Shown here: positions 31,400-58,112 of the stretch, piece after piece
How the letters are laid out: the number at the start of each line of letters is the position of its first letter
Position numbering within the stretch: the first letter of the stretch is position 1
From: Eucommia ulmoides
Taxonomy: Eukaryota; Streptophyta; Magnoliopsida; Garryales; Eucommiaceae
Assembly (NCBI GenBank): GCA_016647705.1
Contig: CM028333.1
Span: 9,436,616-9,500,615 of the forward strand
DNA: 64,000 nucleotides
Direction of reading: 5' to 3'
Made by a program: the position numbers and the translations under genes
Notes under the pieces: generated by a model
The model's database searches: none
What the model was told of the DNA's origin: nothing
Seen by the model: the letters and a program-made list of their open reading frames with translations, nothing else

Positions 31400-33604
31400 G
31401 GAACTAAATTTTTTGGGTTGAAGTGGAACAGTCTACTGGGATTGGAGCCCATTCTTCTCACCAGACAGCTTGGTCACCTCCTCTCTAAAGCCACTCTCAC
31501 TTCTCATCAGCTTCTTGGATTGATCGTGAAATCTCTTCAGCTGAGCCATGTGCTACGCGTGCTCATCTTTAAGATATTTCTCTCTCTTTATGGTCGAATA
31601 GAAGAGCATAGACACAAAGGCAGCCTTAAAAAGTGTCTGCAAAGCAAATGTGAAAGACTTAGCCAAAAATAAAATGCGAAGAAGAGTTGAGAAGAATTTT
31701 AGTGCCATGAATAGTTTTACCGATATAACGTCCCTCTGCAGCTCAACAGTTATCTTCACGTTTAACTTGAAGTTAATGCTCTCATGGTCTAAGGGTGGTG
31801 TGATGAGGTGTATGAAACTTGGTAGCAGCTTAGAGGTGTCCAAGATCCTCTGATCAAGGGGAGGCTTGTGTCCGGCACCGAGAAAGTCACAGGAGCTTGG
31901 GTTGTGCTCGACTAGGGAGCGTCAGATATTGCCTCTCCTTCCACAGGGACCTCCGAAATAATCTTCTTTGCCCTGGCTTTCTTCGGGCCCCCACCTTGAC
32001 ATGTACAGCCTTTCACTTCCTCATGTCCTACACCTCCCCGGTGGCACTCTTCTCGGTTGAGAACGATGAGGCCAGCTCCGATTGAAGGGGTACATCCCTT
32101 CTCGACGTCGCCCTCGCCGATGTGGATACTTCTCTTCTCCACTGTTATCTCCATGTGTTCCTTTCTTCGGTGCAATATCTACCCATCCCGAAGCCTCGTA
32201 CGGGGAACTTTGCGCTGTAGTCGACTATCTGCCCTCAAAGATTCCCTCTTGGGGAGCCCCTTCCTAGGGTCGGGATGCTTATCCCTTCTCGGCAGCCTCC
32301 TTTATTGCCTTCTCCCTTAGCATCTTTTCCAGAACAACTTTGTCCATGTCTGCCAAAGAAAACACCAAGACAGTTAAGCAAGGAAAAAAAAGAATAATGC
32401 TAAAAAATCCAAGTGTTTAGAAAACTCCGAGAAGGGGAGAGAATTTATCGTTCTTGATTTTTGGGATAATATTTGGTATAGGCAGGCCTGGGGCAATATA
32501 AAAATGACGATTGTACAGGGTTGACTCCAACAGATGCTCGAAGTTGTTGAATTCCGTGTTGAGGATAATTTTCCTTTATTGGTAGATCAAGGGGCTTGGT
32601 TGTACTCTCCTACCACTTACTTTCTTGAGAACCTGCACGCAAGAAAACGTGAGAGAGAAATCAGGTTACAAAAAGATGACAAGACCAAAAATATCATTCG
32701 CAAACAAATTTATTCTCACCTACAATACCCCACTCCCTCAGGATAGGGTTGACTCTCTCTTCCATTGGGCCAAACTCCCAACTAGTGCCTCCATGAAAAA
32801 AGAATTGAGGCTTCCAATTTTTGACGAAAGATTCCAGAACCTTAAGGAACTGCTTCCTAGTAGCAACATAGCAGCAACCCTTCCTGGATAGTATTGACTT
32901 AGGAAAAAAGAGGGACGTAAAGAGATCTATAGATGATTCAATCCCATTTGCCCAGCAAATGACATACGTGGCCACGAAAGCCCTTATGCAGTTCGAAACA
33001 AGCAGCGATGAACACAACTGGTACTCTGCGCAGAGGGACCTTACCCATGGGTGGATCGGGAACCTCAGGCCACCATACATATACTCTATATACACGGTAA
33101 AGAAGCCCTGAGGAGGACTGCAGGACCTCTCCCCAGGAAGTGGAAGGCAAATATCCACCCCCTCCGTGAAGGTGAAGTTACTCCAGGCCAAAGCGAGCTC
33201 TTCAACCATCAGTCTTGACCTAACCCTCCAGATGAGACATCTGGAGGGATAGCACTACCACGAACCACCTAGGGCTAATGAGAGGCCTCCGTCAAATCTC
33301 TTTCGGACCCAACTCTATTAGCCAGACCCGAGCAAACCTTAACGGTGGGGGCATCAGAAGGCCCAACACCACCACCCTCATCAGGGCAGCCAAAAGTTCC
33401 ATTCGCTGGGATAGGATGTGATGGCTCCACGTCATTGGAAAAACTTTATTGTTCCTTTGGACATGATGGCAACGCTAGGGTAAGGTCAACCCGCTAGAGC
33501 GGGAAAACTGACAAGGCCCATCTAGAGGTAGCAAACCCTGAAGAGGACCTTGAAGAAGACCCCAACGAAAACCAAGAAGAAGAAGATAAAGAAGCGGAAG
33601 ACAT
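31400..33604 (-). pseudogene. Antisense extra ORF of Tat-like element 1 (Transposase_28-like)
   Basis: The minus-strand ATG at 33604 opens a Ser-rich N-terminus (MSSASLSSSSWFS). The open part at 33209-32694 contains FTVYIEYMYGGLRFPIHP, a hallmark of the plant 'putative gypsy type transposon' domain (Pfam Transposase_28). Downstream pieces near 31840-31560 keep LQRDVISVKL-like words that are also found at 49560 in element 2. Several stops and frameshifts break the frame, so it is a pseudogene. In this element class such ORFs lie between pol and the 3' LTR, opposite to gag-pol, and their role is unknown. Confidence 0.65.
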
Positions 33605-38474: not shown

Positions 38475-39614
38475 AGTACAATAATTTGATTTTCAGTGTG
38501 AATGTTCACAAAAAGCCCACAAATATGAATAATAAGATATAGTCAATTTCAATACCCAAAGCCAGTAATAAAGAAAACATTAACGTACATATTAAAAAAA
38601 CTAACAATACTTTACTTCAATTTCAGTATTCATGGTAAATTATTTAATGTAAATGAATGACAATTGTTGATGTCGAAATTTGGACAACCTCAACGGTATG
38701 GTCTGGTCACTTGTTGATGGAGAGTATGTGCTTCTTCGCTGAAATAGAGATGGAGAAGTTCGGGATCAGTTCGTTTAACCCAAGATGGACAGAGGTGGAG
38801 TGACCCAAAATGGTCCCTAGCAGTGAAGCTACCCATGAGTCTTCTAATTTGTAGAGAGTCTTCTAGTCGAGAAGGGATAAGTCTTAGCATAAATGACCTC
38901 AAATATCTTTTGGGCTAAGAAGAGGTGGTCTAGAGCTGGGATGAGGTGGTCCTGAGCTGGGATGAGACAGTACTTCGACACCTGCACAAAGGACTTGCCT
39001 GGATGGTCCCGGCGTGTCCCCTCCAACGTAAGAATCAGTACTTAAGGGGAAGATTTATAAATAATCTACCGAGAAGAGGGAGCAAATTTCATCTACCTTT
39101 GGGCATTGGTATACCCTCCTATATATAGGCATGAAGTGGATTATCTTAAGGGGTTAAGCATGGATTAGTGTCCCATCAATGTCACATTCGTGTCCTATCT
39201 CGGCGTGTGGCCAATGAGAAGGTGACAAAGAATTGTTTTATGTCGGTCATGGGCTTTTTGGCCCTGTTGCTGAGGCCCATAACAAAAGATATTTGTAGTT
39301 GGAGAAGTGATCCAGCCTATGATCCAAGAAGAACACCTTCTTGTTGTAGCCAAGATGAGGGATTTAATCTCTACCCTTCCCAAATAGTCGGAGACGAGAA
39401 ATGGGAGTCGTGTGAAGCTTTTTGCCCTACCCATCTCAGATAGCTAGAGACGGGAAGGGGGGATTTTGCTAAAGAGCTCGTGGGGGTCAATTTTCGAGAT
39501 GGGCAATGCCGCTACGAAGAGTGTTGAGATGGGAAAGGTTTTCCCATCCTGACGGTGGCTTGCCTGCTCTTTTTAGAGGGTGTTGCTGGTTGTCTTTGGA
39601 GTGGTTGGCGTGGG

Positions 39615-41037
39615 TGATCGCACCTCATTTTGTGCGATCTAATACCACTAAATTAAGTTTTGTTAATCTTTTAAATAAATTAAAATATTATAAATTAAGT
39701 TGTTTTATTTGTTTTTGTAGGATTTTGGAAATGGTACAAAACCATGTTAATTTGGAGCAAAATTCAGAGAAAATGATCAAACGGATAAAAGTCGCGATTT
39801 TCGGTACTAGAATCAAGACCACTGTCCATTGTTTTGGACATAACTAACTATACAGTTGGCATTCTGAGATGAAACAAGTTGCATATGAAAGTAGACTCTT
39901 TAAGCTTTCCAACGACTGGTTATAGAGCCAAATCGGAGTTCGTATGAAAAAGATACAACCGTTTGAAGATGGTCCTTCTGTGCAGCCACATAGTGCTGCG
40001 GGTCAAACCATTTTGACCCGAACCCGGCCCGACCCGCGCCCACTCCGGTGGACAAATTCCACAACAACCCCATTGGCCTCCATATTTGATTTTTTGCACC
40101 CCTAGCCTCCTCTTTTGACTCAAATTCACCCCAAAACTCACATTTTTGATTCTATAAATAGAAGGGAGGTTTGAGAGCAAAAAGAATCCATATTCCTACT
40201 TCATTCTTAGAATAGTTGTAGTATTTTCTTATTTGTTTTTCTTTTATTTCATTTTTATTTTTGGAAGGGAGAATAGTTTGGGGTACAAAGTGTAAATGGT
40301 GTTTGTGAGGATATTATCCGAGAAAATACCACTCAATGCAACAATGAAAAGCTAACTTCCTTCAACCAGGTTAGGATTGTGGTATTGTACTTTTGAATTT
40401 ATGTAATATTGTATTTTTCTTATTTAAATTTGGATTTCGTATAAACAATTGTGTGGAAGGAATTCCGTTCGTAAAAATGAATTTAATTATAATTGAATTT
40501 ATTGTCAAAATGTTCTTGTAGAGATTTTGATTTGAATTCAATTATTGCTAGAACATTAAATCTTGCACCTGTGGTCTTGATTTAATGGCCACACAATCGT
40601 ATTCTTGGGGATTGATTATTGGTCTGGATGGTTTATGCCTAGATTTTAATTCACCTTAGATTAGTTTAATGTAGGAATTAAATACCGAAGATAGATCATG
40701 CCGGAGAATAACAATCCATATATTTCTGAGTAGTTCCGGCTTGTAGTTAGGAACACTCGTTTATACAAATCCGATTTAAATAGAAAATACGAGAAAAACA
40801 TAATTCTCAAAATACTAACCCCACAATTCCTATCCTGGTTCTTTATTTTATTTTTATTTTAGATTTAATATTTTCTTTTCTTATTTTAAAAAAATCAAAA
40901 TTGTTTTCACTAAAGAAAGAAAAGTAATCAGAAATTGATAATTACAAGACCGATCCCTGTGGTTCGACACCCTACTTGAACACCGTACTACATCAGTATC
41001 GCGGTACCAATTTAAGGGTATTATTTTTGAGCGATCA
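39615..41037 (+). repeat. 5' LTR of the Athila-like element
   Basis: It starts TGATCGCACCTC and ends GAGCGATCA. A likely TATA box, TCTATAAATAG, is at about 40150. The first 25 bases can fold (GATCGCA paired with TGCGATC). Confidence 0.92.
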
Positions 41038-41042
41038 AATTT

Positions 41043-41060
41043 TGGCGCCGTTGCCGGGGA
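41043..41060 (+). other. Primer-binding site of the Athila-like element
   Basis: TGGCGCCGTTGCCGGGGA begins five bases after the LTR end. This wording is typical for Athila and related plant gypsy elements. Confidence 0.8.
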
Positions 41061-41320
41061 TTGGCATCGCTAATTATTAATTTTTGTTATTTTTTTTTTC
41101 TCCATCTGTATAAATTCATCAATTTTTTTTCTTGAGTTTTATTTTTTCCAGGTTAATCGAGATCCAATCTTTCATTCCAGATCTTCAAGCAAGGATTCAG
41201 TTTAATCTGTTTAAGTTTTCTTTAAAAAAAAAAAAAAATAACAACAAAAAAATTAAAAAAAAAAAATCAAAAATTCAAAAAATTATTATTAGAAAAATTA
41301 GTTTATTAAATTGTTGACAG

Positions 41321-41431
41321 GTAGGCTGGGCCTCCGTCATTCATCTTTATTCTGTTATCTGGTAGGCTGAGCCTCCTATTCGCATTTATTTATTTTAATT
41401 TTTTTTTTCTTAACTGGTAGGCTGAGCCTCC
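41321..41431 (+). repeat. Three GGTAGGCTGAGCCTCC repeats in the leader
   Basis: Copies at 41321-41335, 41361-41376 and 41416-41431, each able to form a small stem (AGGCT with AGCCT; GGCC variant in the first). They lie between the primer site and the ORF start, where packaging or dimerisation signals usually sit. The function is inferred from position only. Confidence 0.7.
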
Positions 41432-41510
41432 AGATCGCTTGTTGATATAATTGTTTTAATTTGTTAAAAAAATATAAAATATAAAAAAAAAAAAAATTGG
41501 ATTTGGGTAA

Positions 41511-42722
41511 ATGGAAAATTACTTTGAGAGATTTGCCATTTCGTTTGCAGATTCTCAACAATATTTTCTCTTAGGACCCCAACCTGACCTTTACTCATGT
41601 ACCGCAGACCAAAATCCACACCATCTCACCAATCAATTTACGTACAATTACCAAAATCCCACAGACCTCTATAATAATGTTTATCTCGATCCATATTATT
41701 CGCCGCCTGAGTCTAATCAATACTCGAATAATTATGGATGGGATCAACAATATTATAGTGAGCTTTCAGGGTCGTATTGTTACGATCAATCATTTTACCA
41801 ACCTCAATGTCAATCATCGTTTTCCCAAGAAGCTAGGAATTCTGAACCCACTGTAATGCAACAAATGCTAACAATCTTGAAAGAGCAAAACCAATCCCTA
41901 GTAGAGACTAACCAAGCCTTAGCAGAGGAACGCCAAACCTTAACGGAAAACCACCAATCCTTAGTAGAGCAAGGCCAAATCTCAGAAAGGCAAAACCAAA
42001 TCTTGGAAAGGCGAGCTCAATCCTTGAAAAAACAATTTGAAGAGATAGATTGGAAAGAAACCCTAGTTAGGCGAATCATTGAATTAGTAAAAGAGGAAAT
42101 TGCAAAAAATGGTCTAGAGACTGACATTCGGGTAGGTGATAAGAAAAGTGGTCTAGAGCACGAAAGTGAATTTAGAAAGTTGTCAAAAGGACCACAGCTA
42201 AGCAAAATTGGTGAGGAACCCAAACGATATGATCACGAGTTTGAGCCATTTTGGGCTCAACCATTACCAGTTTGTGAGGCAGAAAAAAAAGTAGGGAACA
42301 AAAGTGATGGTGAGCAGGTGAGCGAAAAAGTAAAAAATACGTACATGGAGGAGATCAAGGTAGAAAGTCATAAGGAAAATGAGATCCAATCATTCGAGAC
42401 ACATTTGGGTAATCTTCCTTTGATAGGGACATCCATTATACCCTTACCACCGCATCCAAAAATTAAGTCATATCTTTTTGATGCAGTGGACCAACCGTCA
42501 AACCAAACCACAAAAAAATCATGCCTTTTTGTTTGGATTGATGTAACTCAACTTCTATTTGGGGGCCTAATAAAAAGACCACCAAGTAAGTCCCAACGAA
42601 AAGAAATGGGATTTGATCCGGGAAAGAAGTTAAGAAATTTGAGTGTCGGCCGCTATCCATCACTAACCGACTGGAGAGTAACTCAACAGAAGGTAAGAAG
42701 TGGGTTACTTCACTACGGTTAG
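41511..42722 (+). CDS. 403-residue coiled-coil protein of the Athila-like element, unknown function
   Basis: One uninterrupted frame from ATG to TAG. Residues 1-115 are rich in Tyr, Asn, Gln and Pro (for example YYSPPESNQYSNNYGWDQQ) and look disordered. Residues about 115-200 form a Gln/Glu/Leu-rich heptad region with a decaying repeat (QSLVETNQALAEERQTLTEN and variants), so a coiled coil is likely. Residues 200-300 are charged, and the C-terminal 100 residues contain a hydrophobic patch (CLFVWIDVTQLLFGGL) and a basic end. I see no zinc knuckle, protease or polymerase motif. It sits where an Athila element would carry gag-pol or the envelope-like ORF. It may be a diverged gag or structural protein, or a remnant of the region downstream of pol. 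That it stays open in a young element suggests it has been kept, or has had no time to decay. Confidence 0.75.
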   Translation: MENYFERFAISFADSQQYFLLGPQPDLYSCTADQNPHHLTNQFTYNYQNPTDLYNNVYLDPYYSPPESNQYSNNYGWDQQYYSELSGSYCYDQSFYQPQCQSSFSQEARNSEPTVMQQMLTILKEQNQSLVETNQALAEERQTLTENHQSLVEQGQISERQNQILERRAQSLKKQFEEIDWKETLVRRIIELVKEEIAKNGLETDIRVGDKKSGLEHESEFRKLSKGPQLSKIGEEPKRYDHEFEPFWAQPLPVCEAEKKVGNKSDGEQVSEKVKNTYMEEIKVESHKENEIQSFETHLGNLPLIGTSIIPLPPHPKIKSYLFDAVDQPSNQTTKKSCLFVWIDVTQLLFGGLIKRPPSKSQRKEMGFDPGKKLRNLSVGRYPSLTDWRVTQQKVRSGLLHYG

Positions 42723-44124
42723 TGGGGTTAAGACACTCAACGTCCGGCTAAAGACGTTAAAATTAGCGCTGAGTGGGAGGCAACCCACTGTTGTGTTAGT
42801 TTTCTAATTTTAGTGTTTATATTTGATTTAATAAGATTTCTTTGAGTGTTCTATCTGACAGATTTACGAGCAGTCCACACCGACTCAGTACAAATAAGCA
42901 ATTCTGATACGTCAGGTTGTATCTCTCCTTGCAAATTTAATTTTATCATTTTCACATTGAGGACAATGCAAGATTCAGGTTTGGGGGGGGGTAAAAGCTT
43001 GTATTCTTTCTGATATTTTATTTCACACTTAATTTTGTCAATCTATCATTTGATAACACATCTATCGGGTACAAACTAGAATTTGCTAAATAATTATTGG
43101 AGCAGAGCACTGATTTTTAAAAATATTTCATTTTTCGACGCTTACATGCATGCTAACTTTATTTTATTTTAAATTTAGTACATGAGTTAGTTTACTGAAT
43201 TTTGGTAAGAAAATAACTTATCCCTAAAGTTAAAAAAAAAAAAAAAAACAAATAAATTATTTTTTTTTTAAAAAAATAAATAAATAAATTGTGATACTAA
43301 TAAAGATTTTCTGTCTTAGTAATGAACTTTCGCTGAGTAACCGGACCTCTTGCCTCAGTAAGCTTTGAGTGTTCGCGTAAAAAGGGGAAAGCAATTTATT
43401 AAGACGATAAGAGGCTTGTTAACTTCGAAGCCTAAGTTGTTCGAGTTATTAAGCCTGAAAGGTGCTTTAACACCTAGTGCCCCGAGCCAACTGGATTGGG
43501 ATCATTAGTCCAACACTCGCTACACGGACATCTTAGAAAGCCCAGTGGGGTTAACATTGCACATGTCACTTATTTAAAGAAAATTACTTATAAAACAAAA
43601 AAAAAAAAAAAATTTATTAAAAAAATATAATTAAAAAAAAAAGAAAAAAAAAAAAGAAGAAACAACACCGATATAAACAAATATTTTTTTTTTTTTTTTT
43701 ATTTTGGGAAAAGATTGTTTGAATTGTACAAAACCAGTTGACTAACTACATGTGTTAAATTCATTATAAACGAGAGTTGTATATATGTCGTGGGTACAAA
43801 AATGAATATTGTTAAAAATCACGTGCTATGAGATTAATGACTATTTCAATAACTCTTGTTTGCCTTTGATTTGATATGTTAGCATTGGATAAGATTGATA
43901 GAAAATTTGTGAGAGATAATATGCACGAAAAGAGATTTTGAGATGTTTGTGGGTAGCATCACTGTAACCCTCACGAGACTATACTCGTCCACTAGGGGTG
44001 ACCTAGGGGTTTAAAAGCTTATTGCATACGCTAAATGCAATCGTGTTCCCTACGAAAATGGCTTTTTATTTAATTATTATATTTAGTTTTGCTCGAGGAC
44101 TAGCAAAATTTAGGTTTGGGGGTG
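42723..44124 (+). other. Non-coding 3' interior of the Athila-like element
   Basis: It holds the conserved phrase around 42751-42790 and a first polypurine-like tract (CAGGTTTGGGGGGGGG, about 42975-42991) preceded by TTGAGGACAATGC, a second Athila hallmark. A GC-richer block follows at 43315-43560 (CACCTAGTGCCCCGAGCC), then A/T homopolymers, then the final polypurine tract ending at 44124. I see no gene. Confidence 0.6.
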
Positions 44125-45547
44125 TGATCGCCCCTCATTTTGTGCGATCTAATACCACTAAATTAAGTTTTGTTAATCTTTTAAATAAATTAAAATATTA
44201 TAAATTAAGTTGTTTTATTTGTTTTTGTAGGATTTTGGAAATGGTACAAAACCATGTTAATTTGGAGCAAAATTCAGAGAAAATGATCAAACGGATAAAA
44301 GTCGCGATTTTCGGTACTAGAATCAAGACCACTGTCCATTGTTTTGGACATAACTAATTATACAGTTGGCATTCTGAGATGAAACAAGTTGCATATGAAA
44401 GTAGACTCTTTAATCTTTCCAACGACTGGTTATAGAGCCAAATCGGAGTTCGTATGAAAAAGATACAACCGTTTGAAAATGGTCCTTCTGTGCAGCCACA
44501 TAGTGCTGCGGGTCAAACCATTTTGACCCGAACCCGGCCCGACCCGCGCCCACTCCGGTGGACAAATTCCACAACAACCCCATTGGCCTCCATATTTGAT
44601 TTTTTGCACCCCTAGCCTCCTCTTTTGACTCAAATTCACCCCAAAACTCACATTTTTGATTCTATAAATAGAAGGGAGGTTTGAGAGCAAAAAGAATCCA
44701 TATTCCTACTTCATTCTTAGAATAGTTGTAGTATTTTCTTATTTGTTTTTCTTTTATTTCATTTTTATTTTTGGAAGGGAGAATAGTTTGGGGTACAAAG
44801 TGTAAATGGTGTTTGTGAGGATATTATCCGAGAAAATACCACTCAATGCAACAATGAAAAGCTAACTTCCTTCAACCAGGTTAGGATTGTGGTATTGTAC
44901 TTTTGAATTTATGTAATATTGTATTTTTCTTATTTAAATTTGGATTTCGTATAAACAATTGTGTGGAAGGAATTCCGTTCGTAAAAATGAATTTAATTAT
45001 AATTGAATTTATTGTCAAAATGTTCTTGTAGAGATTTTGATTTGAATTCAATTATTGCTAGAACATTAAATCTTGCACCTGTGGTCTTGATTTAATGGCC
45101 ACACAATCGTATTCTTGGGGATTGATTATTGGTCTGGATGGTTTATGCCTAGATTTTAATTCACCTTAGATTAGTTTAATGTAGGAATTAAATACCGAAG
45201 ATAGATCATGCCGGAGAATAACAATCCATATATTTCTGAGTAGTTCCGGCTTGTAGTTAGGAACACTCGTTTATACAAATCCGATTTAAATAGAAAATAC
45301 GAGAAAAACATAATTCTCAAAATACTAACCCCACAATTCCTATCCTGGTTCTTTATTTTATTTTTATTTTAGATTTAATATTTTCTTTTCTTATTTTAAA
45401 AAAATCAAAATTGTTTTCACTAAAGAAAGAAAAGTAATCAGAAATTGATAATTACAAGACCGATCCCTGTGGTTCGACACCCTACTTGAACACCGTACTA
45501 CATCAGTATCGCGGTACCAATTTAAGGGTATTATTTTTGAGCGATCA
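44125..45547 (+). repeat. 3' LTR of the Athila-like element
   Basis: The same length as the 5' LTR. The differences seen are in positions corresponding to the opening GCACCTC/GCCCCTC, CTAACTATAC/CTAATTATAC, TTAAGCTT/TTAATCTT and GAAGATGG/GAAAATGG. Confidence 0.92.
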
Positions 45548-46142
45548 GTGGGCTAAGGTATACCCCTGCCAAGCACAATCTTCATACTTAATCCTTGGTA
45601 TGAATTGATCTTGATGGAGAGTTGTAGGCACATGGCGGCCTTCAATTGATTGCGTTGGAGTAACCATATTTACACTCATCAGTTGCCCCTAGGCCCTAGT
45701 GTTGAGAAGGGATTCAAAGCGCCGGGGACTTTATTGGGAGTCTTTTTCGAAGTTGTGTTGCTTCTATGGAGTCTTTTGGGATGTTCACGACCTTTTTTTA
45801 TCTTTGAAGGGCATTACTCGGGGGGTCAGGCCTCTTTCCAAGAAAGAGAACGGGCGGTTCCAAGATGGGAGCAGTTAGCCCGACAACGAAAATGGTAGGC
45901 TTGAAAGTAGAAACGGACGGCCCAAAAATGGTAATGGTTGGCCCGCCCTAAATTTGCGAAAAATTTTATGAACGTAATAATTGTGTCTCGTCGCGCCTGC
46001 CCTTTTCAATACATCCTAAGACGCCGCCTGCCTAACCGACGGAAGAGAAACATATGTCTGTACGTTTCCTAAGTGGCGCCTCATTCACAAGCGTATTTAA
46101 ACCGTCGTTAGACATGACGATTGGAATGAACAGATCCCTTCC

Positions 46143-53756: not shown

Positions 53757-54400
53757 CTAGTGAATGATGTGATCATCTGCCTCGACGCTCTTCATGAGCA
53801 TATCATCAATGTAAACTTCTATCGTCAAGCCAATCTCTTCCTTGAACATCTTGTTCACGAGCCTTTAATAGATGGCCTTGGCGTTGCGAAGGCCGAAGGG
53901 CATAACCTTATAACAGTAGGTGCCTCTGTCTGTGATGAACGAGGTCGTTCCCTTATCGGGAGAAAACATGGGGATTTAATTATATCCAGCATAGGCGTCG
54001 AGAAAACTCAAGAGTTCATGCCCCGCCGTGACATCTATAACCAAATCTATTCTTGGAAAGAGGAAGAAATCTTTGGGGCACGCCTTGTTAAGGTCTTTGA
54101 AATCCACGCAAAGGCACCATTTGTTCCCATCCTTGGGCACAAGAACAACATTAGAGAGCCAGTTAGGAAATTTTATTTCTTCCACCACGACAGATTTTAC
54201 TAACTTGTCCATTTCCTGCTCGATGAGCTTCTGGTGCTCCAGATGAAATTTTCTTTTTTTTGGCCTTACGGGGGGATGGTGAGGATCAGCGTGAAGACGA
54301 TGCATGGATACACTTGGATCGATCCCAGGACGTTCATTGTGAGACCAAGCAAACACATCGTAGTTTTTCCTGAGGAGATCCGTGAGCTCTTCCCACCGTG
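53757..54400 (-). pseudogene. Ty3/gypsy reverse transcriptase remnant (Tat-like)
   Basis: From 54356 down, the minus strand encodes an RT start with FAWSH..., PGIDPSV, LVKSVVVEEIKFPNWLSNVV, VDFKDLNKACPKD and SFLDAYAGYN. These are classic gypsy RT motifs, and the (H)..PGIDP wording suits the Tat lineage. In another frame further down, MPFGL and the catalytic VYIDDML (about 53798-53816) are still readable. The frame change between the two parts and the break at 53757 make it a pseudogene. Confidence 0.82.
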
Positions 54401-54760
54401 TCGCGCTGAGCTTGGAACCAATCCGAACAATTTGTCCCTTAATGGTGGGATGGATGGGTACTTCTAACTAATCCCCATGTAATCATGGACGAGGCTCCTT
54501 ATCCTGGGGGTCGTCGATCGGCACAGTTCCCTAATCAGACAGAACCATGAGCTCAGTTTCGTTGTTCCCGGTCCCAGCCATTGATTGCTATTTTTTCTTC
54601 TTGAGTGCCCTCCTGGCATATGATCTGGTTGTTCCTTGATCTCCATGCACTCTCCCTATCCCTTTCTCTGTAGGGAACTTCATTGATTGGTAATAGGAGA
54701 AGCCACAGCTTTTAGGGCAGCTAATATCGATTGTCCAATAATGGTATTATACGGAGATGG

Positions 54761-57056: not shown

Positions 57057-58112
57057 TGTTGATGTCGAATTTTGAACGACCTCAACGATATGGTCTAGTC
57101 ACTTGTTAATGGAGAGTATGTACTTCTTCGTTGGAATGAAGATGGAGAAGTTCGTGATCAGTCCATTTGACTCGAGATGGGCAGAGGTAGAGTGACCCGA
57201 AATGGGTCTCGAGTAGGGAAGCTACCCGAGAGTCTTCTAATTCGTAGAGAGTATTCCGGTCGAGAAGGGATGAGTCGGAGCTGAAATGAGCTCAAATATC
57301 TTTTGGGCCGAGAAGAGGTGGTCTCAGCTGGGACGAGGCAGCACTTCGACACCTGCACAAAGGACTTGCCGGGATGGTCCAGGCGCGTCCCCTCTGGCGT
57401 GAGAATCAGTGTTTAAGAGGAAGATTTATAAATAAGCTACCGAGACGAAAGAGCAAATTTCATCTACCTTTGGGCATTGGTATTCCCTCCTATATATAGA
57501 CATGGAGTGGATTAGCTTAAGGGCTTAAGTATAGATGAGTGTCCCCTCAATGTCATATCAGTGTCCTATCTCGGCGTGTGGCCAATGAGAGGGTGACAAA
57601 GAATAGTTTTATGTCAGTCATAGGATTTTTGGCACTGTTACTGAGGCCCATAGCAGAAGATATTTGTAGATGAAGAAGTGATCCATCCTATGATCCGAGA
57701 AGAACACCTTGGTGCTGTAGTCAAGATGAGGAATTTGATCCCTACCCTTCCCGGATAGCTGGAGATGAGAAGGGAGAGTTGTGTGGAGCTTCTTGCCCTG
57801 CCCTTCTCGGATAGCTAGAGACAGGAAAGGGCGCTTTTGCTGAAGAGCTCCTAGGGTCAATTTTCGAGACAGGTAATACTGCTGCGGAGAGTGCCCAGAT
57901 GGGGAAGGTTTCCCATCCCGACGGTGGTTTGCCTACTCTTCCTAGAGGGTGTTGCTGGCTGTTTTTGGAGTAGCTGGCATAGGCTAAGGTGTGCCCCTGC
58001 CCGGCACAATCTTCACACTTAATCCTCGATATAAATTGATCTTGATTGAGTGTTGTAGGCATGTGACAGTCTTTAATTGATTGCGTTGGAGTAACAATTT
58101 TTACACTCATCA
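57057..58112 (-). repeat. 5' LTR of Tat-like element 2
   Basis: 1,056 bp; on plus it runs TGTTGATGTCG to TTACACTCATCA. It matches the split LTR 38665-45681 and, inverted, the LTRs of element 1. A TATA-like TATATATAG on the minus strand lies near 57490-57500. Confidence 0.8.

What the first reader, a model, noticed from the sequence alone, without database searches (positions are those of the whole stretch)
39615..45547. Young Athila-derived non-autonomous element with a single intact coiled-coil ORF
The element is complete: exact GTGGG duplications, equal 1,423-bp LTRs with only four differences seen, primer site and polypurine tract intact. Yet it has no gag-pol. Instead it keeps one unbroken 403-codon ORF with a Tyr/Asn/Gln-rich head and a heptad-rich middle. 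LTR divergence near 0.3% implies recent movement. A young element that depends on a partner but keeps its own ORF suggests that the protein, or its coding RNA, serves a purpose, for example as a diverged gag.
Basis: partly seen in the sequence, partly recalled or inferred. Interest (0 to 1): 0.7.

Follow-up and report, generated by a model that had tools for sequence, protein, structure and literature searches.

The report
Jumping DNA keeping half a Gag
This is a recently active, many-copy plant retrotransposon of the Athila type that lost its enzymes and its capsid but keeps, apparently under natural selection, a protein made from the back half of the virus-like Gag protein, which suggests that Gag does something useful beyond building the particle shell.

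Summary
In detail: 5,933-bp LTR element, GTGGG duplications, two 1,423-bp LTRs with 4 differences, primer site, PPT, one intact 403-codon ORF. The host genome holds at least 34 other full or nearly full interiors at 94-99%; 24 of 34 keep the ORF intact. Internal tree branches show omega 0.49 (p 1e-4) and few stops, terminal branches 0.97; but internal synonymous changes run threefold above the noncoding rate, so this rests on the synonymous yardstick. Collinear relatives at about 50-70% protein identity exist. Gag-pol Athila relatives share LTR end, primer site, leader and a 94% identical linker: likely partners. The protein is Gag-derived but no capsid: two collinear blocks match the post-capsid half of that Gag (HHalign 87% and 92%; capsid and integrase controls under 1%), Pfam finds no capsid domain and the zinc knuckle is eroded. 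So 'diverged gag' is partly right: a capsid-less Gag. Non-autonomous Athila keeping gag under selection are known; this half-Gag form did not appear in my ten paper searches. Its function is inferred.

The parts
39610..39614 (.). target-site duplication GTGGG, left
39615..41037 (+). 5' LTR, 1,423 bp; TATA-like TATAAAT at 40153 (another at 39689)
41043..41060 (+). primer binding site, 5 nt after the LTR, the offset described for Calypso/Diaspora (tRNA-Asp)
   Evidence: PMC1142308 passages
41061..41510 (+). leader without any ATG, about 81-83% identical to the leader of gag-pol relatives
41311..41431 (+). three copies of GGTAGGCTGRGCCTCC (within 41311-41335, 41352-41376, 41407-41431), able to fold as hairpins; also in the gag-bearing relative L104
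41511..42722 (+). ORF of 403 codons: capsid-less Gag derivative
41889..42035 (+). seven 21-nt units coding xQxLxEx heptads, core of the predicted helix (residues 106-199)
42739..43378 (+). linker, 93.75% identical to the linker of a gag-pol relative, where the match starts 9 nt past the pol stop codon
42977..42991 (+). internal (second) polypurine tract with upstream GAGGAC
44112..44122 (+). 3' polypurine tract AGGTTTGGGGG next to the 3' LTR
44125..45547 (+). 3' LTR, 1,423 bp
45548..45552 (.). target-site duplication GTGGG, right

Best explanation
A recently active non-autonomous family of the Athila lineage in a plant genome. Its interior corresponds to a gag-pol Athila element that lost the N-terminal and capsid part of gag and all of pol; LTR ends, primer site, leader hairpin repeats, linker and both PPTs were kept (shown by comparison). 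The single ORF codes for the post-capsid half of Gag: a degenerate zinc-knuckle/Tyr-Asn-Gln-rich head, a predicted coiled coil grown by 21-nt repeats, and a charged middle (homology shown for residues 25-120 and 199-257; origin of the rest unclear). Enzymes and capsid must come from elsewhere, most likely from the gag-pol Athila relatives that share the cis signals (inferred from anatomy). Most likely mechanism, inferred: the protein is translated from the element's own RNA, associates with itself and with the partner's Gag through the Gag-derived head and coil, and so brings its RNA into the partner's particles or condensates. Selection acts on it while lineages replicate and ends after insertion (indicated by internal against terminal branches).
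For: Copies: 34 other interiors at 94-99%, 33 over the whole query and one from base 53, 24 of 34 with intact ORF; 23 of 27 LTR pairs examined, the window's included, have identical 5-bp duplications, 21 of these 23 have K2P of at most 0.0078 and two pairs are identical. Selection: internal branches N/S 65/55 against 2.43 expected (omega 0.49, p 1.2e-4), terminal 124/54 (0.97); stops internally 1 against about 13 if scaled to synonymous changes (4.5 at the noncoding rate), terminally 11 against 17.6 (20.8); indels outside simple repeats, distinct events: ORF 2 in 1,098 bp, tail 9 in 1,060, leader 2 in 231. Translation: 813-nt ATG-free run ending at the ORF start. Partner: L104/L108/L109 has Retrotrans_gag 9e-22, RVT_1 8.6e-21, RNase H, integrase 5.6e-15, the same PBS, leader 83%, linker 93.75%, LTR 85% over the part fetched; of 34 sites examined 19 carry gag, 10 of them L104 and copies 94-97% alike in the gag piece, none carries both gag capsid and this ORF. 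Gag ancestry: HHalign of the ORF-family profile to Gag piece p2 86.6% (residues 25-120) and p3 92.3% (199-257), capsid 0.3%, integrase 0.2%; 80 shuffled decoys at most 2.3%; HMMER 12.5 bits each (E 0.003) against at most 4.6 among 300 decoys; Smith-Waterman against locally shuffled ORF: p2 2 of 1,000, p3 0 of 1,000, capsid piece 686 of 1,000; L106 gives the same registers weakly, in order.
Against: Internal-branch changes in the ORF exceed the noncoding rate: synonymous 55 against 18.4, nonsynonymous 65 against 44.7; the omega of 0.49 therefore rests on a high synonymous count, which I cannot explain (constrained linker and leader, or recombination among subfamilies, are guesses). The ORF is no less diverged from the window than the noncoding parts (0.0213 against 0.0186-0.0200). 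With the tree from noncoding parts terminal omega is 0.77, p 0.04. Between subfamilies dN/dS is 0.54-0.73, decay included. Some young copies carry broken ORFs: L026 has 2 stops and a frameshift at LTR K 0.0028, P about 0.002 if all arose after insertion (rough); a stop at codon 175 is carried by 4 copies. So broken copies may move, against a strict need in cis. The 21-nt units among themselves show no constraint (pN 0.404, pS 0.457). The Gag matches are remote (single pairs E 6e-4 and 0.025). The partner copy read in most detail is itself broken (a stop and a frame change in gag, a stop in pol) and its LTR is only 85% alike; I verified no intact partner. No expression or protein data.
Confidence: 0.45

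Rival explanations
1. The ORF is kept for RNA reasons only: an open frame that ribosomes can traverse protects the genomic RNA from decay or exposes packaging signals; the protein is a by-product.
For: Stops are the most depleted changes and indels are rare in the ORF; omega only about 0.5; overall ORF divergence equals noncoding divergence, and nonsynonymous changes on internal branches are above, not below, the noncoding rate.
Against: Relative to synonymous changes missense changes are halved on internal branches, and collinear protein identity is retained at about 50-70% between subfamilies, most in residues 301-403 (72-73%).
Confidence: 0.22
2. Trans-dominant control: like Ty1 p22, a C-terminal part of Gag that interferes with particle assembly of the partner, so limiting copy number.
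For: It is an N-terminally truncated Gag; [quoted passage not shown] Broken-ORF copies appear among young insertions, as for a trans-acting factor.
Against: As I recall, p22 contains capsid sequence, which was not found here (recalled, no call). An inhibitor of the family's own helper is hard to keep by selection within an amplifying family.
Confidence: 0.15
3. Relic: the selection signal was inherited from a time when the ORF mattered, or comes from recombination among copies, and the family now moves purely as a parasite.
For: Terminal branches are near neutral; a stop at codon 175 in four copies; ORF-less copies L103, L118, L121 exist; synonymous excess on internal branches fits recombination with diverged copies.
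Against: The two copies with identical LTRs carry intact ORFs (L016 and L020, whose LTR pairs are in L009 and L013); the three ORF-less copies whose junctions I read differ from each other, so no amplified ORF-less lineage was seen in this small set (the genome-wide count did not complete).
Confidence: 0.15

Closest known systems
Non-autonomous Athila families of Arabidopsis with LTRs plus a single gag ORF (Marco and Marin 2008, PMC2410132; abstract, outline and passages seen)
   Same: Athila lineage, pol lost, ORF in gag position, young copies, ORF under purifying selection, thought to be mobilised in trans
   Different: Those ORFs are reported as Gag; here no capsid domain is found and only the post-capsid half is recognisable
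RLG_Quinta/RLG_Cereba of wheat (PMC11302176; passages)
   Same: non-autonomous element and gag-pol partner that share cis signals; ORF with Gag ancestry kept
   Different: Quinta keeps a clear GAG domain plus DUF1 and belongs to the centromere-specific elements
TR-GAG elements (PMC9784723 and PMC11728184, passages)
   Same: two LTRs around one ORF
   Different: TR-GAG is defined by a GAG domain, not found here
Ty1 p22 restriction factor (PMC4599808, search listing only)
   Same: protein made of a C-terminal part of Gag
   Different: p22 comes from an alternative transcript of Ty1 itself; ours is the ORF of a separate non-autonomous family
Ty1 Gag prion-like domain (PMC10372613; abstract and passages)
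   Same: disordered N-terminal Gag region required for particle assembly; compare the Tyr/Asn/Gln-rich head here
   Different: fused to capsid in Ty1; prion-like behaviour of our head not tested

Membership tests
Athila lineage (OTA non-chromovirus Ty3/gypsy) | PBS complementary to tRNA-Asp, 5 nt beyond the LTR (as in Calypso/Diaspora) | tested here: met
   (exact 18-base site, 5 nt after the LTR); description in PMC1142308; that these 18 bases are the tRNA-Asp complement is recalled
Athila lineage (OTA non-chromovirus Ty3/gypsy) | extra PPT in the linker (Athila4, Calypso) | tested here: met
   PMC2829016 passage
Athila lineage (OTA non-chromovirus Ty3/gypsy) | RT phylogeny | not testable with these tools
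   No RT found in the element. A relative with the same signals has RVT_1, RNase H and integrase, but I made no RT tree.
Athila lineage (OTA non-chromovirus Ty3/gypsy) | env-like ORF with Athila ORF-1 domain (reported in 16% of Athila elements, PMC6317226 passage) | tested here: not met
   no PF03078 match in the ORF; optional, absent in most Athila elements by that figure
TR-GAG | GAG (capsid) domain between two LTRs | tested here: not met
   no PF03732 among matches up to E 10; controls L006 5.5e-21 and L104 9e-22
LARD | non-coding interior (definition recalled) | tested here: not met
   403-codon ORF, intact in 24 of 34 copies, selection signal
Non-autonomous Athila with gag ORF under selection | purifying selection on the ORF across copies | tested here: met
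   (omega 0.49 and 0.44 on internal branches), with the caveat of the high synonymous count
Non-autonomous Athila with gag ORF under selection | ORF is Gag | tested here: inconclusive
   homologous to the post-capsid half only; capsid part not found

The most novel reading that the evidence does not exclude
A satellite-like partnership: a capsid-less Gag, kept for long enough that subfamilies differ by dS of about 0.4-0.5, acts as an adaptor that carries the non-autonomous RNA into the particles of gag-pol Athila elements, so that the accessory half of Gag (zinc-knuckle-derived head, coiled coil) has become a packaging protein independent of the shell.
Probability: 0.28. Interest if true: 0.75.

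Novelty: new variant of a known kind. Interest (0 to 1): 0.5.

Why it matters
How non-autonomous LTR elements get into their helper's particles is poorly known, and the described cases that I found keep a GAG domain or no ORF. A family that amplified recently while keeping only the non-capsid half of Gag separates the two halves by natural experiment: it makes testable whether RNA recruitment and co-assembly can reside outside the capsid.

Tried and rejected
Tried without result: Pfam on the ORF (nothing above cutoff; weak PXA, GAS, KIP1 hits taken as coiled-coil chance); PDB by sequence (designed constructs only, best E 0.027); viral contigs by protein and by patterns (the four loci have 64-68% GC and match the element only in the pattern); plasmids and phages. 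AlphaFold2 on the single sequence: pLDDT 42.5, helices 106-153 and 159-199, blocks above 70 only at about residues 121-200, so no fold search was made; a second job for the C-terminal part was not accepted because the queue was full. Pfam on three forward linker pieces: no pol or env remnant. RNA folding of the two PPT cassettes: no excess stability (z about 0). Envelope idea: the best 19-residue hydrophobic stretch averages only 1.4 Kyte-Doolittle (residues 337-355), so not pursued. dN/dS among the 21-nt units: no constraint, uninformative. A host gene captured by the element was considered; the Gag matches explain the ORF better, though residues 258-403 have no HMM-supported source.

Rows set aside: the partial copies L049, L052, L053 were left out (and L050, L051 too); the 5 changes seen in 30 or more copies count as window-private.
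Full report
Observation. The ORF is far longer than chance (403 against at most 189 in 1,000 shuffles). The joined flanks align across the insertion point to a diverged repeat copy at 57057-58112, an empty site. LTR divergence corresponds to about 0.11 My (0.03-0.28) at 1.3e-8, a rate taken from general knowledge.

Signals around the ORF. From 40701 to 41510 there is no ATG; the 813-nt run ends at the ORF's ATG, is the longest in the window on either strand (next 502) and occurs in 0 of 5,000 shuffles; the leader alone gives 4 of 5,000. Eleven ATGs do lie further upstream, between a presumed start near 40185 (30 nt after the TATA-like site, my assumption) and 40698, so scanning from that start would meet short upstream ORFs. 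The heptads at 41889-42035 are seven 21-nt units (lag-21 identity 0.65; codon shuffles at most 0.45). A second PPT with the same upstream GAGGAC stands at 42977-42991; one extra PPT is described for the linkers of Athila4 and Calypso (PMC2829016, passage).

Copies. The host genome answered (946.7 Mb, 391 contigs, unnamed; a plant by its contents, my inference). Besides the window, 33 places match the whole interior query and one matches it from base 53, at 94-99%, plus fragments; 40 of 1,649 candidates were scored, so this is a lower bound. I fetched these 34 and 5 partial or rearranged ones: 24 of the 39 have an intact ORF, all among the 34. Of 27 LTR pairs examined (the window's included), 23 have identical 5-bp duplications; 21 of these 23 have K2P up to 0.0078, and two pairs are identical; LTRs of the remaining copies were not dated. 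The family is therefore recently active.

Selection. Outside simple repeats there are 2 distinct indels in 1,098 bp of ORF, 9 in 1,060 bp of tail and 2 in 231 bp of leader (counted per copy: 0.054, 1.415 and 0.382 per kb); substitution divergence is not lower in the ORF (0.0213 against 0.0186-0.0200). Pooled pN/pS among 25 intact ORFs (window included) is 0.476 (300 pairs, not independent; 258 with pN below pS). Mapped by parsimony on a tree of 37 sequences with a context-aware expectation from the noncoding parts, internal branches give N/S 65/55 against 2.43 expected (omega 0.49, p 1.2e-4) and terminal branches 124/54 (omega 0.97); internal versus terminal p = 0.007. One stop lies on internal branches where about 13 are expected if scaled to synonymous changes (4.5 at the noncoding rate). 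A tree from noncoding parts only gives 0.44 internally and 0.77 (p 0.04) terminally. The pattern is that of a protein needed while the lineage replicates and released after insertion.

Caveat. On internal branches the ORF changes faster than the noncoding parts: synonymous 55 against 18.4, nonsynonymous 65 against 44.7 expected at the noncoding rate (63 against 24.1 and 68 against 59.2 on the other tree). So missense change is low only against synonymous change. Constraint on leader and linker signals, or recombination with diverged copies, could cause this; I did not test either.

Against strict need in cis: L026, L030 and L031 are young (K 0.0014-0.0028) yet broken; L026 has two stops and a frameshift, P about 0.002 if all came after insertion (frameshift share assumed); a stop at codon 175 is carried by four copies. 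Shared descent, recombination or recurrent C-to-T change can explain the last.

Deeper relatives. tblastn in the genome gave 111 matches (103 of 1,215 candidates scored): the window's subfamily mostly at 94-100%, one group near 64-70% and one near 54-62%, most of these with stops but with nearly full-length collinear frames (grouping mine). For nine fetched copies of these two groups dS is 0.26-0.51 and dN/dS 0.54-0.73; residues 301-403 are most conserved (72-73%), residues 200-300 least. Partial matches at about 50% exist further out (L111, L128, L131).

Partner. The LTR end plus primer site (31 bases) occurs exactly 67 times, reversed control 0. By their places 33 sites lie at ORF matches (my comparison; gag was not sought there). 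The other 34 were examined for 1.3 to 2.6 kb downstream: 19 carry Athila-type gag, 7 this ORF or a remnant of it, 8 neither, none both. Ten of the gag sites are L104 and nine whose gag piece is 94-97% like it, with leaders 81-83% identical to the window's. L104/L108/L109, read in pieces, has Retrotrans_gag, a protease-like match below cutoff, RT, RNase H and integrase, the same leader repeats, a linker 93.75% identical to the window's that begins 9 nt past the pol stop, and an LTR 85% identical over the part fetched. This copy is itself broken, and I did not verify an intact partner. The window family thus equals such an element with gag-pol exchanged for the ORF.

Origin of the ORF. tblastn of the ORF on L104 gave two collinear hits in the gag frames: residues 21-122 on the zinc-knuckle region and its Asn/Tyr-rich sequel (E 0.025), residues 199-245 before the protease (E 6e-4). 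Locally shuffled ORFs reach these scores in 2 of 1,000 (p2) and 0 of 1,000 (p3), and the capsid piece's in 686 of 1,000. With a profile of 18 ORF-family members, HHalign gives 86.6% and 92.3% for these pieces, 0.3% for capsid and 0.2% for integrase; 80 shuffled decoys stay at or under 2.3%. HMMER gives 12.5 bits (E about 0.003) for each piece against at most 4.6 among 300 decoys; of 74 pieces from seven gag loci the two L104 pieces lead, and L106 pieces follow below significance in the same registers and order. In the alignment the knuckle C-C-H-C reads C-D-H-F (my reading). Pfam finds no capsid domain in the ORF, with positive controls. So the ORF is the post-capsid half of Gag, with repeat growth in the coil.

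Mechanism. Shown or well supported: recent activity, Gag ancestry, loss of capsid and pol, relatives with the enzymes and shared cis signals; selection during replication with the caveat above. Inferred: mobilisation by those relatives, and that the protein links the element's RNA to partner Gag. Rivals are RNA-level selection, p22-like interference, and a relic.

Comparison with print. Non-autonomous Athila with single gag ORFs under purifying selection are known from Arabidopsis (PMC2410132), and GAG-donor partners from wheat (PMC11302176). In the rows that I saw from ten searches (the lists were cut at 15 of 17, 12 of 75 in 46 and 6 of 25) no title or abstract start describes a capsid-less Gag kept in such a family; the library is open-access only, so this is weak evidence of novelty.

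Verdict. A real, recently active element and a new variant of a known kind; the surprise is the capsid-less Gag that seems to be under selection.

Noticed in passing
L103, L118, L121 (copies without the ORF): Three ORF-less copies have separate deletions whose right ends map to window 42961, 42989 and 42994, all at or just before the internal PPT; they may stem from plus strands begun at that PPT during reverse transcription.
   Followed up: partly
L066/L067 (LTRs of copy L036): Matching GTTGC duplications but LTRs 10% apart; the difference lies mainly in the second half of the 5' LTR, which looks like another subfamily: gene conversion or an unusual recombinant.
   Followed up: partly
G000 C2:10660574-10672677, C4:52801221-52808799, C1:25170185-25177791: Interiors spaced about 4.5 kb apart, which fits tandem arrays sharing LTRs.
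   Followed up: no
39615-39968: All four LTR differences fall in the first 354 of 1,423 LTR positions.
   Followed up: no
ORF copies, internal branches: Synonymous changes in the ORF are three times as many as the noncoding rate predicts on internal branches (55 against 18.4); unexplained.
   Followed up: no
L006: A contig filed under Candidatus Burkholderia humilis carries plant-like DNA (a Ty3-type gag, PF03732 5.5e-21, and a weak match to the window's linker around the motif searched): probably host-plant contamination or misassembly.
   Followed up: partly
32697-33254 (-) and 53979-54467 (-): Remnants of other gypsy elements in the window: weak Transposase_28 match (1.3e-4, below cutoff) and an RT-like frame judged by eye, in which Pfam found no RT.
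   Followed up: no
41300-41450: The leader repeats fold better than 199 of 200 shuffles (z -3.2) and recur in the gag-bearing relative L104; possible packaging or dimer signals.
   Followed up: partly
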